Shown here: positions 11,032-38,746 of the stretch, in pieces
How positions within the stretch are numbered: the stretch's first letter is position 1
Layout of the letters: every line of letters begins with the position of its first letter
DNA from: Acidobacteriota bacterium
Lineage (GTDB): Bacteria > Acidobacteriota > Blastocatellia > Pyrinomonadales > Pyrinomonadaceae
DNA length: 64,000 nucleotides
Assembly: GCA_019639135.1 (NCBI GenBank)
Contig: JAHBSL010000002.1
Location: 186,001-250,000 of the forward strand
Reading direction: 5' to 3'
Notes under the pieces: model-generated
Told to the model about the DNA's origin: nothing
The model's input: only the letters and a program-made list of their open reading frames with translations
Database searches by the model: none
Made by a program: the position numbers and the translations under genes

Positions 11032-13113
11032 ATGAAACTGAATCGTTTCAAGACGCAACTCATTTTTTCCATCACTAGCTTTGTGTTCCTTTTATTGGCT
11101 GGTTTTCAAACCGGATCAGCCACACAGACGGACGATTGGAATGCGACGATAGCCAGGTTGGAGAGCCGAGCTGCGACCTCCGCAGGAATAGGTGATGTTC
11201 CGAACACGGAATCCTATGCCAAACTGCTCGAAGGCCAGCGACATACATGGGCTGCCAAGCGAACAAGAAGTGCGGCCCGTGCCACGGCTTCTATTCGCTC
11301 GGCAAGAACTGCATTGGTTGCTGCAATTGATGCCGACCCGAAGCTAGCAGAGGCTTACACAATGCTCGCTGAAATAGAAATTTTGCGTCGGCTTGGAGAA
11401 ACGGAGGTAGTTAATGCTATCCGTTTAGCTAAGATGGCATTGAGATTCGATGATAAGAACTTTGGAGCACGGCGTATCCTCGGCCGTCTTTACTCATTCG
11501 GAGCGAATCTTGCTCGCGGGCAATTGAACCGGCCGAATGCGGAACTTGCCGTTGTCGAATGGAAAAGGGTCACGGAACTCGATCCGCGGAATGCCGAGGC
11601 TTGGGCATTCTTGAGTGTGTTGTATGAAAGGCTCGGGGAGAAAGAAAAAAGGTTAGATGCTCTACGGAAATGGGTGTCTTCAAGTGGAGCAATAGAGAGC
11701 CAATACTACCAATTCATCGTCGGGGTTAACGAAGACCTGGCACCGGAGCGTGCATCGGTTCGTTTAGCCTTCGACCTGATCTCTCTTGGCAGGGTCAATG
11801 AAGCCCTGGAGGTCATTGCCCCGGTCGTTTCCGACCAACCGAACAACACTGTCGCAGTAAGTATCTTGAGAGATATAGCCGAACAGGCCGACGAAAGTAA
11901 GTTCGAACAGGCCGCGGAACCATTAGCCCAGACAGTGGCAACTGATCCCGAGAACGTGGAACTCGCCAATACGCTTGCGCGGCTATACCGAAGGCGGGGA
12001 ATGCTGCCGCGTGCCGAGTCAGTCTTCACGCGTGCGCTTTCTCAGATAGGGAAAAACGAAACGAGGGTGCGTGCACGGATCCTTACCGGCCTGGGGGATC
12101 ATTTTGCCGGCATAGGTAAGTATTCCGAGGCGATCGCCGCCTACGCGGATGCGCTGGCACTGTTTGGAGCCAATATCGGCCCCGGTGATCAGGAGATCGC
12201 TCGCGAAGCTGCCCGGAAGATGATGCTTACGGCCCGTGTCACAGGTGAGCCTGGCCGCATCGCCGGAGCGTTCGACAAGGCGTCGAAGAGTTTGGGCAGC
12301 GGCGACGTGTCAGTAGTGCTTGAGCGAGCGTCATATCTTCGCGAAACAGGGAAGCGAGTTGAAGCCCTTGCATTTGTTAGAGCAGCCGGAGAGCGTGGTG
12401 GCCGGACGTTCGAGCTTTTTCGAACCGAGATAAACCTGCTGGTTGAAACGGGAAAAACCCAGGAAGCAATCGCTCTGATCCGGAATGCGACCCGTTCTGA
12501 CTCTTCCGCGGCTACTTCGGGTCAAAACGGCTCTAACTCGCAATTTTTGGACAAGTTCACCTCCACACTGCTAACCACCGGTGCCTATATTTCCGCAAAA
12601 ATGGGCTCGCAGGCATTGGCATCAGCTGAAGAAGTTGCGTCTTTTGCCAGAGGGAACGAGCGGCGTCAGCTTGCAGCCATCAGCAGGGCTACCGCCCTGA
12701 AACTCAATGGCGATCGTAATGCTGCATTGGATGTTTTACGAGGAATTCTTAACGAATCGTCTGCGAATCCTATTGCTCTCAATAACCTCGGGTACTATCT
12801 CCTGGACGAAATGGAAACAGTCGAAGAGGGCACAGCTCTGATCAAAAGGGCTGTAGCGATAGATCCGCGAAATGCTTCATATCTGGACAGCTTCGGAAAG
12901 GCGATGTTGATCAAAGGAAATCTTCAGGACGCGGAAATGTACTTGCTCGAGGCGGTTGCGATCGAGCCGGGTTCGATGGCCATTTGGGAGCGTCTCGGCG
13001 AGCTTTATCGGCAAAAAGGGCAGCTTGCCGAGTCCCGCCGGGCATTCGAGAGAGCCCGTCAGATAGCCTGGCATCCGGAAGACAAGGACAGGTTGGCCGC
13101 CGGCCTAAGGTAA
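11032..13113 (+). CDS. Large exported TPR-repeat protein
   Basis: A 693-residue protein with an N-terminal signal sequence or anchor (hydrophobic to about residue 26) and tetratricopeptide repeats along most of its length. The repeats show typical A-x-x-x-Y/L-P spacing, such as VTELDPRNAEAWAFLSVLYERLG, and a C-terminal pair around IALNNLGYYLLDEM and MAIWERLGELYRQKG. TPR proteins act as protein-binding scaffolds; no catalytic part is visible. Although it follows the BamD-like gene, a terminator lies between them, so it probably has its own promoter. Its target is unknown. Confidence 0.8.
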   Translation: MKLNRFKTQLIFSITSFVFLLLAGFQTGSATQTDDWNATIARLESRAATSAGIGDVPNTESYAKLLEGQRHTWAAKRTRSAARATASIRSARTALVAAIDADPKLAEAYTMLAEIEILRRLGETEVVNAIRLAKMALRFDDKNFGARRILGRLYSFGANLARGQLNRPNAELAVVEWKRVTELDPRNAEAWAFLSVLYERLGEKEKRLDALRKWVSSSGAIESQYYQFIVGVNEDLAPERASVRLAFDLISLGRVNEALEVIAPVVSDQPNNTVAVSILRDIAEQADESKFEQAAEPLAQTVATDPENVELANTLARLYRRRGMLPRAESVFTRALSQIGKNETRVRARILTGLGDHFAGIGKYSEAIAAYADALALFGANIGPGDQEIAREAARKMMLTARVTGEPGRIAGAFDKASKSLGSGDVSVVLERASYLRETGKRVEALAFVRAAGERGGRTFELFRTEINLLVETGKTQEAIALIRNATRSDSSAATSGQNGSNSQFLDKFTSTLLTTGAYISAKMGSQALASAEEVASFARGNERRQLAAISRATALKLNGDRNAALDVLRGILNESSANPIALNNLGYYLLDEMETVEEGTALIKRAVAIDPRNASYLDSFGKAMLIKGNLQDAEMYLLEAVAIEPGSMAIWERLGELYRQKGQLAESRRAFERARQIAWHPEDKDRLAAGLR

Positions 13114-13238: not shown

Positions 13239-13600
13239 GGGCGGCAAAAATATCTTTACAGCGTGCAAAATTAAGAATATTGCGTGCAAAATTATATTTT
13301 TAACGTGCAAATCTAAATATTTAGCGTGTAAAAATAAGTTTCCAGCACGCAAAAATAAGTTTCCAGCGTGCGAAAATAAGTTTCCAGCGTGCAAAAATAA
13401 GTTTCCAGCGTGCAAAAATAAGTTTCCAGCGTGCGAAAATAAGTTTTCAGCGTGCAAAAATAAGTTTTTAGCGTGCAAAAATAAGTTTTTAGCATGCAAA
13501 ACTAAAACTTTAGCGTGCAAAATTAAATTTTTAACGTGTAAAACTAAAAATTGTGCGTGCAAAAATAAATTTTCAGCATGCAATATTAAGTTTTTAGCGG
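13239..13600. repeat. 21-bp tandem repeat array, 16 full copies plus degenerate ends
   Basis: Units start at 13260 and every 21 bases to 13575, with a degenerate copy before and a partial copy after. The consensus is close to AGCGTGCAAAAATAAGTTTT(T). The central copies (13344-13448) are nearly identical, with TTTCC ends; outer copies drift. Each unit has an A-tract and, in most copies, a T-tract about 9-12 bases apart, so A/T tracts recur at about 10.5-base intervals. That spacing predicts intrinsically curved DNA. Translated on the minus strand it would give heptads such as NLFLHAK. Confidence 0.95.
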
Positions 13601-13665
13601 ACCTCAAATACACACTTCGCTCGCAACGCTGCGGTTCCGGTCTGTGATTTTGTCGGTCAATAGGC

Positions 13666-13696
13666 AATAAAAGAGGCCGCCTTTTCAGACGGCCTC
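13666..13696 (-). terminator. Rho-independent terminator of the M48 protease gene
   Basis: On the minus strand a 7-bp stem GAGGCCG / CGGCCTC, extendable by two pairs past one mismatch, is followed by TTTTAT. It lies 25 bases beyond the protease stop codon. Confidence 0.8.
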
Positions 13697-13721: not shown

Positions 13722-14891
13722 TTATGGTTTCTCCGGTGAAGGAGTAGGTTCCGGAGCCTGGTCTCGACGCTTGAGCTGCGGCGGTTTGCTCGAGGAAGAA
13801 TTCGATGAATCGGAGCCATCCGAATCGCTGACGCCCGGCTCTCCTTCGGGTTGTCGGCGTTTGAGCGTTGGTCTGCCCGGTTCACCCTCCGCATCATCGC
13901 GAAAGATCCCAGCTTTCGCATTGGTCATGCGCAGAAGATGATTCTTGACCCGCTGAAACTCGGACGTGCTGATGATGTATTCCTCACGCTCAGGAAAACG
14001 GGCCACGAGAGCAAGGCTCGCGTCTCTGCGATCGAGCGACTGCGGGTGAGTGGTAAAGATCTTCGCAAGTGTGCCGGGCTTTTTCTTGTTCTTTTCGTTC
14101 AACTTCTCGAACATCGTCGCCATTGCTGTCGGATCGTAGCCGGCGGCGTAAAGATACTGAACGCCAAGCATATCGGCTTCCATCTCGGCGCTTCGACTGA
14201 ACTTAAGGAAACTCAAGAGCTGTGCAAAGCCGCCTGCATTCTGGGCGATCGGAGCGGCAATTCCGCCGCCGAAGATGATCGTTGCCAGAAGGCCATAGTT
14301 GATCGCCTGAAGTTTGCCCTGATTCTCCATCGCGTGGCGGGCGGCGACGTGTGCTATCTCGTGAGCCATAACGCCCGCGATCTCGGCTTCGTTGTCTGCG
14401 GCAAGAATAAGCCCTTTGTTAACAAAGAAATAGCCTCCCGGCAAGGCGAACGCATTGACCTCGTCGCTGTCAATGACCTTGATCGTAAAGGGGATCTTCG
14501 CATCGGAATGGAGCACGAGGTTCTGCCCGACCCGGTTGATATATTCCGTGACCATCGGGTCTTCGACCATTTTTGCCGATTGCTCGACCTCAAGAGCCAA
14601 CTGACGCCCTATCGCGATCTCTTTTTGCTGAGAGCCGCCGAGCCAACCAAAGAACTTATCGGACCCGCTGTTGATCTTGCGCTTGCCGATCATCGCCGGA
14701 TTTTCTTTATCCGACAGCGGCTTGAGATTCGATTGCGAGGCCAGTTGGGTCGTCTGTGCTTCGGATTTCGCCTTTGAGGTCTTATTCCCGCGTTTCTGAG
14801 CCTCTGCCTGAGACGGCAGGAAGGCAAAAGAGCCGACGACCATCACGAACGAAAGCATAAACGAAATTGCTGTTGATTCTTTGATCTTCAT
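13722..14891 (-). CDS. Exported M48 family zinc metalloprotease
   Basis: A 389-residue protein with a signal peptide ending near SQAEAQ. The zinc-protease motif HEIAHVAARH is at about residues 177-186, with the third ligand Glu in EADMLGVQYL some 60 residues later. This matches the BepA/LoiP/Oma1-like M48 class, which degrades or helps fold outer membrane proteins in the periplasm. The C-terminal tail is rich in Pro, Glu, Ser and Arg and probably disordered. The ATG at 14891 is preferred, with GGTGGA seven bases upstream; a GTG at 14903 is the alternative. It is divergent from the orphan ATPase. Confidence 0.88.
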   Translation of the reverse strand: MKIKESTAISFMLSFVMVVGSFAFLPSQAEAQKRGNKTSKAKSEAQTTQLASQSNLKPLSDKENPAMIGKRKINSGSDKFFGWLGGSQQKEIAIGRQLALEVEQSAKMVEDPMVTEYINRVGQNLVLHSDAKIPFTIKVIDSDEVNAFALPGGYFFVNKGLILAADNEAEIAGVMAHEIAHVAARHAMENQGKLQAINYGLLATIIFGGGIAAPIAQNAGGFAQLLSFLKFSRSAEMEADMLGVQYLYAAGYDPTAMATMFEKLNEKNKKKPGTLAKIFTTHPQSLDRRDASLALVARFPEREEYIISTSEFQRVKNHLLRMTNAKAGIFRDDAEGEPGRPTLKRRQPEGEPGVSDSDGSDSSNSSSSKPPQLKRRDQAPEPTPSPEKP

Positions 14892-15170
14892 AAAGGTGTC
14901 CACCAGATCGGTTCAACTGTAATCCTATCGAAAAGAGAAACTGGAAATCAATGTTTTTTCGATGCAAGGAATTTCGATTTGGTTGTGAAAATAACTTGCC
15001 ACCAATCTATTTTCAACATTCCCAAAGATGTTTCAGCAGCTGAAATAAAATTTTCCTTTTTCCCGGAAGCGAGAACATGCTATATTTTAAGTTGTCGGGA
15101 GCCTTCTCACTAAGCTCCAATATCTTCCTAATCCCCGCTTTTCTCTCGGCTGAGAGTGATTCGTAACTGA
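14892..15170. promoter_or_regulatory. Divergent promoter region between M48 protease and ATPase genes
   Basis: A 279-base AT-rich gap between two genes that point away from each other, so both promoters should lie here. A possible -10 element, TATATT, is near 15081 in the plus direction. No clear operator, riboswitch or hairpin is visible. Confidence 0.4.
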
Positions 15171-38520: not shown

Positions 38521-38582
38521 TTCTGAGTCCCGGCTTTCGAGAATTCCAAATTCCAGATTTGGAATATCGCATTGGATAATAA

Positions 38583-38602
38583 GCCCTTGCTGACGCACGG
38601 GC
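38583..38602. repeat. GCCC/GGGC hairpin repeat, copy 1
   Basis: GCCCTTGCTGACGCACGGGC, a short inverted repeat with GCCC / GGGC arms. It recurs with changes at 38663, 38747 and 45534, each time followed by CCTC or CTTC. Confidence 0.65.
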
Positions 38603-38662
38603 CTCGTCATTCCAGACTCCAGATTCCAAATTCCAGATTCACCATTCACCATTCGAACATAC

Positions 38663-38682
38663 GCCCTTGCTGATGCGCGGGC
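38663..38682. repeat. GCCC/GGGC hairpin repeat, copy 2
   Basis: Differs from copy 1 at two positions (TGATGCGC for TGACGCAC). It is preceded by ACCATTCACCATTCG. Confidence 0.65.
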
Positions 38683-38746
38683 TTCTGCATTCGGATGCCA
38701 GATTTTAGACTCCGAATTCATCATTCACCATTCACCATTCGAGCAC

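What the first reader, a model, noticed from the sequence alone, without database searches (positions are those of the whole stretch)
13239..13600. Helically phased 21-bp A-tract array between convergent genes
Seventeen units of exactly 21 bases, or two helical turns, each carry an A-run, most with a T-run about half-way, so the tracts recur near every 10.5 bases. Phased A-tracts are known to bend DNA. A 340-base array should form a strongly curved or superhelical segment, and the shared GCGTGC core gives up to 17 identical docking sites. The unit also keeps two minus-strand frames open as heptads, but the lack of an ATG start and the identical-unit pattern favour a DNA-level role (nucleoid protein binding, supercoil sink between convergent genes, or attachment site).
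Basis: partly seen in the sequence, partly recalled or inferred. Interest (0 to 1): 0.7.

Follow-up and report, generated by a model that had tools for sequence, protein, structure and literature searches.

The report
Two-helical-turn tandem array between genes
A stretch of 17 back-to-back 21-base repeats sits between two genes of an acidobacterium; it turns out to be one of many such arrays in that genome, each with its own sequence but all with a unit of exactly 21 bases (two turns of the DNA helix), which points to rows of evenly faced protein-docking sites rather than to bent DNA as such.

Summary
In detail: 17 contiguous 21-bp units, no indels, between a TPR gene and an M48 peptidase gene. 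The curvature reading is only partly right. A wedge model makes the array among the most curved DNA in 1.93 Mb of its genome. But 37% of random same-composition 21-mers, tandemly repeated, are predicted at least as curved, and the A- and T-runs alternate about 8 and 13 bp apart, not 10.5. It is not coding: no frame shows a synonymous excess.

The array is one of about 20 in the 1.93 Mb sampled. Self-similarity at lag 21 marks 23 loci (lags 42 and 63: 18 and 15); lags 19, 20, 22 and 23 mark none. Units differ from locus to locus and many lack A-tracts; the period is what is kept. One array persists in two sister species with its unit re-homogenised. Another family keeps a TGTC-N4-GACA dyad in three species at different places while linkers change, as operators do. 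The window array is absent from both sister sites.

Best reading: a helically phased array of docking sites for an unidentified DNA-binding protein, turning over like a minisatellite. Rival: a neutral minisatellite whose amplification favours two-turn units. The protein is inferred, not shown.

The parts
13245..13601 (.). 17 contiguous 21-bp units, consensus CAAAAATAAGTTTTCAGCGTG; central units 6-11 nearly identical, edge units diverged
   Evidence: TRF; unit list; substitutions cluster in columns 6, 10, 14 and 15 (30 of 55; chi-square p = 4e-5 for even spread)
13329..13496 (.). most homogeneous block (units 5-12) of the array
   Evidence: unit list
13450..13576 (.). segment with the highest predicted curvature in the window (166.8 degrees over 126 bp, Bolshoy wedge model)
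13673..13696 (.). terminator-like hairpin GAGGCCG-N10-CGGCCTC between array and M48 gene; a close copy lies at the same place in sister genome G025
   Evidence: sequence and L003 intergenic; the consensus scan did not list it because of its 10-nt loop
11032..13113 (+). upstream flanking gene: secreted-type TPR protein, 693 aa
13722..14903 (-). downstream flanking gene: M48 family peptidase, 393 aa; TPR-M48 neighbourhood kept in the genus
   Evidence: Pfam PF01435 E = 1e-31; synteny

Best explanation
The array belongs to a genome-wide class of intergenic tandem arrays whose unit is exactly two helical turns (21 bp) long while the unit's sequence differs from locus to locus. I think the most likely role is a helically phased docking array: each unit offers one copy of the same site on the same face of the helix, so that an oligomerising DNA-binding protein can load cooperatively along 100-350 bp and form a local nucleoprotein filament or wrap. 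Units are multiplied and homogenised by slippage or unequal exchange. In this AT-rich copy the phased A- and T-runs also curve the DNA, which may help wrapping but is not what defines the class. Shown: the array, its exact register, the genome-wide 21/42/63-bp class, absence of coding constraint, turnover between species, and operator-like conservation of a dyad in one sister family. Inferred: that a protein binds, which one, and that this particular array is bound.
For: In 1.93 Mb of the own genome, 42-bp stretches at least 80% self-similar at lag 21 occur at 23 loci (lag 42: 18, lag 63: 15) against 0 at lags 19, 20, 22 and 23; TRF agrees (period 21: 12 arrays, 42: 3, 63: 3, 84: 1; 19, 20, 22, 23: none with 3 or more copies). 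Coding multiples of 3 such as 18 and 24 are far rarer than 21. In 162 genomes of the class, a pattern allowing all periods 13-33 found 8 loci; seven are about 21 bp and one is 32 bp, near three turns. One array is conserved at the same site in three species (13, 13 and about 20 units) with the 21-bp register kept apart from one 20-bp unit. A TGTC-N4-GACA array family occurs at different places in three species with dyad columns conserved against linkers (4:43, 0:22 and 8:49 changes in 8 dyad versus 13 other columns; p = 5e-6, 3e-5, 6e-5). Dyads are enriched in the class (combined p = 5e-4). In the window array the AGCGTGC columns change less than average (12 of 55 changes in 7 of 21 columns, p = 0.04) and A/T positions change mostly to A/T (18 of 31, p = 0.004). 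No frame shows synonymous excess.
Against: No binding protein is identified. The window unit itself has no significant dyad (p = 0.53). The window array is missing at the orthologous site in both closest sisters, so it is dispensable. Units in one array share descent, so substitution counts are not independent. The A/T-preserving bias is not seen in the pooled class.
Confidence: 0.43

Rival explanations
1. Neutral intergenic minisatellite. Arrays arise and are lost by slippage or unequal exchange; the exact 21-bp unit reflects a bias of the amplification machinery (a two-turn loop or wrap during replication or repair), not selection.
For: Homogeneous centre with diverged edges; absent in both sister species; copy number differs between species at a shared locus, 13, 13 and about 20; no coding or strand preference; indel to mismatch ratio of 21-bp arrays is not lower than that of other tandem repeats in the same loci.
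Against: Conservation of the TGTC/GACA half-sites against linkers in three species, dyad enrichment, and persistence of one array at one locus through about 20% divergence are not expected from pure mutation bias.
Confidence: 0.37
2. Curved-DNA element: phased A- and T-tracts make a static superhelical segment that acts as a supercoil sink or bend between the convergent genes.
For: Bolshoy wedge curvature ranks first of 1.93 Mb over 336 bp and third over 126 bp; end-to-end distance 0.17 of contour length. Run positions are coherent at 10.5 bp.
Against: 37% of random same-composition 21-mers, tandemly repeated, are predicted at least as curved (69% in the AA-wedge model); A- and T-runs are 8 and 13 bp apart; many sister arrays are GC-rich without A-tracts; most lie between tandem or divergent genes.
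Confidence: 0.1
3. Translated heptad-repeat peptide on the minus strand.
For: A 154-aa minus-strand frame spans the array.
Against: Synonymous changes equal expectation in every frame (open minus frame 13 observed, 13.9 expected of 55); no Pfam match; period 21 excess is not matched at 18 or 24; no frame is shared between arrays.
Confidence: 0.03
4. RNA element: chain of hairpins in the 3' region of the TPR transcript.
For: Plus-strand RNA folds better than dinucleotide shuffles (z = -3.1); in the sequence GCGUGC can pair with itself through G-U.
Against: With a null that keeps the repeat and permutes columns, z = -0.5; minus strand z = 0; across the class the excess is equal on both strands, as DNA dyads give.
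Confidence: 0.05

Closest known systems
Bacterial minisatellites (VNTR loci)
   Same: intergenic direct repeats, homogeneous centre, gain and loss between species, copy number differences at one shared locus of the class
   Different: unit length is fixed at exactly 21 bp (and multiples) at about 20 loci with unrelated sequences
Phased A-tract curved DNA / A-tract periodicity of prokaryotic genomes (PMC3940949, PMC3431218, PMC4132750)
   Same: A- and T-runs coherent at 10.5 bp in this array
   Different: that signal is diffuse through genomes, not long exact tandem arrays; most arrays of the present class lack A-tracts
Iterons and multi-operator arrays (named from general knowledge)
   Same: repeated sites spaced about two turns; dyad sites conserved against linkers in the TGTC family
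   Different: no replication-initiator gene or origin beside the window array; sites differ between loci; protein unknown
Heptamer tandem repeats of prokaryotic intergenic regions (most abundant class in the SPADE survey, PMC6344855) and cyanobacterial STRR (general knowledge)
   Same: intergenic, widespread, function unclear; 21 = 3 x 7 and the own genome also has many 7-bp arrays
   Different: most 21-bp units have no 7-bp substructure; the passages of the survey that I read do not name a 21-bp class
CRISPR arrays
   Same: regular repeats between genes
   Different: no spacers: units are contiguous and nearly identical throughout

Membership tests
Minisatellite / VNTR | contiguous direct repeats of about 10-100 bp | tested here: met
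   17.0 x 21 bp, 0% indels
Minisatellite / VNTR | copy number varies between strains or close species | tested here: inconclusive
   window array absent in both sisters; another array of the class has 13, 13 and about 20 units in three species; strains not available
Intrinsically curved DNA | A-tracts in phase with the helix | tested here: met
   vector strength 0.61 at 10.5 bp, although spacings alternate 8 and 13 bp
Intrinsically curved DNA | unit more curved than same-composition units at the same period | tested here: not met
   37% (wedge model) and 69% (AA-wedge model) of random units are at least as curved
Intrinsically curved DNA | anomalous gel mobility | not testable with these tools
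   needs a gel assay
Iteron / operator array | one specific dyad or site per unit, conserved against linkers | tested here: inconclusive
   window unit: no significant dyad (p = 0.53), AGCGTGC columns slightly conserved (p = 0.04); TGTC family of the same genus: p = 5e-6 to 6e-5
Iteron / operator array | cognate initiator or regulator gene beside the array | tested here: not met
   neighbours are a TPR protein and an M48 peptidase
Protein-coding heptad repeat | excess of synonymous changes in one frame | tested here: not met
CRISPR | unique spacers between repeats | tested here: not met
   units contiguous
Short heptanucleotide repeats (STRR-like) | unit of 7 bp | tested here: not met
   TRF finds period 21 only at this array

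The most novel reading that the evidence does not exclude
Bacterial chromosomes of many phyla carry a so far unnamed class of dispersed intergenic elements: tandem arrays of exactly two-turn (21-bp) units with locus-specific or genome-specific sites, read by a protein that assembles along one face of the helix. The window array is an A/T-rich member; a Bacteroidales MAG has dozens of five-unit members.
Probability: 0.28. Interest if true: 0.85.

Novelty: new variant of a known kind. Interest (0 to 1): 0.6.

Why it matters
If period and not sequence is what is kept, these arrays are a genome-wide signature of something that reads DNA in steps of two helical turns, either a protein or the amplification process itself. 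That makes a concrete search possible (find what binds many different 21-bp arrays in one genome) and gives a physical handle on a long-standing question, namely what intergenic tandem repeats of bacteria are for.

Tried and rejected
Rfam at E up to 1: only weak chance matches to eukaryotic RNAs. BLAST against phages and plasmids: no match. Exact 26-base unit pattern in 84,980 genomes and in viral contigs: none. A two-unit variable-gap pattern in 396 genomes of the phylum drowned in AT-rich chance hits. Viral contigs as comparison: periods spread over 13-14, 19-24 and 27-33 without an exclusive 21 peak. Indel rate as a test of register selection: uninformative, equal to other tandem repeats. 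RNA structure: not above the column-permutation null for the window array. Promoter and terminator scans: at chance level.

Full report
1. Observation. TRF finds 17.0 copies of a 21-bp unit at 13244-13599 with 80% matches and no indels. The units run in register from 13245 to 13601; units 6-11 are almost identical and the edges diverge. The array lies between a TPR gene (11032-13113, +) and an M48 peptidase gene (13722-14903, -), followed by a terminator-like hairpin at 13673-13696 that recurs in the sister genome G025. It is the only array with this unit in its genome. A-runs and T-runs alternate about 8 and 13 bp apart; pooled, they are coherent at 10.5 bp (vector strength 0.61).

2. Not coding, not RNA. 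One minus frame is open across the array, but synonymous changes among units equal expectation in all six frames, and the open frames differ between arrays of other genomes. Plus-strand RNA folds better than dinucleotide shuffles but not better than a null that keeps the repeat and permutes its columns.

3. Curvature. With the Bolshoy wedge parameters (written from general knowledge) the array holds the most curved 126 bp of the window (166.8 degrees). It ranks third in 1.93 Mb at 126 bp and first at 336 bp. The control matters: a unit of the same composition in random order, repeated every 21 bp, is at least as curved in 37% of trials, and in 69% with an AA-only wedge model. Curvature therefore follows from period and AT content.

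4. The class. Tandem repeats in the flanks of those loci, outside the seed arrays, show period 21 far above its neighbours (26 arrays, against 1 at 20 bp, 5 at 22, 6 at 18 and 3 at 24); those genomes were pre-selected. In 162 genomes of the own class, with all periods of 13-33 bp allowed, seven of eight loci have about 21 bp and one has 32 bp. The unselected test is the own genome: in 1.93 Mb, 23 loci are self-similar at lag 21, 18 at lag 42 and 15 at lag 63, and none at 19, 20, 22 or 23. The sister genome G002 gave one such locus in 400 kb, so density varies. Units are unrelated between loci and many have no A-tract, for example CGGAACGGTTTGACGGCTTGG and TGTAGGCTTACATTTCGGGAT. Gene orientation around them is mostly tandem (11 of 20).

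5. Evolution. The window array is absent at the same site in the two closest relatives, where the gap between the genes is 275 and 63 bp instead of 614. By contrast the array at G000:C12:50108 is present at the same site in G002 and G025 with 13, 13 and about 20 units; in each species the inner units have become alike while edge units still match across species. A third array (G000:C9:103619) is missing at its orthologous site in both sisters, but arrays with the same dyad, TGTC-N4-GACA, lie elsewhere in G034 and G025. There the eight dyad columns hold 4 of 47, 0 of 22 and 8 of 57 changes. That is how binding sites behave. Over the whole class dyads are enriched (combined p = 5e-4), but the window unit does not show one (p = 0.53).

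6. Interpretation. Two turns of the helix, not seven codons, best explains why 21, 42 and 63 are favoured while 18 and 24 are not, and why one array of the class has 32 bp. Either a protein reads the arrays in two-turn steps, or the process that multiplies units favours two-turn lengths. Half-site conservation, dyad enrichment and site persistence tip me to the first; absence of the window array in sisters and its minisatellite-like edges keep the second close behind. No protein has been identified.

7. Limits. About 47% of the own genome was examined. Assemblies are drafts, so unit numbers may be collapsed. The host group is inferred: genome G076 of the same family has the same match at the same coordinates as G514, behind the named record of L060 (Pyrinomonadaceae bacterium Bin_76_1). 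Units within an array share descent, so p-values on substitution counts are optimistic. Literature was searched only in open papers; A-tract periodicity is well described (PMC3940949, PMC3431218, PMC4060949) and intergenic heptamer repeats are noted as unexplained (PMC6344855). My ten searches found no description of a 21-bp array class.

Noticed in passing
L054, L055, L056, L065, L067, L069, L070, L079, L088, L092, L133 and others (CACWTR01, Bacteroidales MAG RUG10906): Dozens of interspersed intergenic elements of mostly five 21-bp units: GAAAATNNATTTTC dyads joined by 7-bp linkers from a small vocabulary (ATGACGT, ACGTCAT, AAAGTTT, AAACTTT, AAGCTTT), ends often marked by CGCG or ACGTC. A dyad about every 10.5 bp.
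   Followed up: partly
L472 1519-1728, L473 1508-1697, L474 1412-1664: TGTC-N4-GACA 21-bp arrays at different places in three species; dyad conserved, linkers unrelated in G025.
   Followed up: yes
L042 1760-1961 (same stretch in L084 7431-7632): A second, unrelated 21-bp array (TATCTCTGTTCAGGGTTAACG) directly beside an A/T-type one.
   Followed up: no
own genome G000 (L209-L228, L348-L427): About 50 tandem arrays of 7 bp with three or more copies in 1.93 Mb, next to the 21/42/63 comb; a few 21-bp units (TCTGGCTTCTGGCTTCTGACT) are three heptamers.
   Followed up: no
window 38543-38733: An 80-bp tandem repeat containing ATTCCAG-like heptamers.
   Followed up: no
G002:C15 about 124772-125584 (L434): Where G000 has a 21-bp array (C12:119904), the sister carries a small transposase-like gene that resembles REP-associated Y1 transposases (from memory, not searched), flanked by GTCGTCTTCGACGAC hairpins.
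   Followed up: no
G437:C124:1697-1901 (L229): A tandem array with a 32-bp unit, close to three helical turns, in another family of the class.
   Followed up: no
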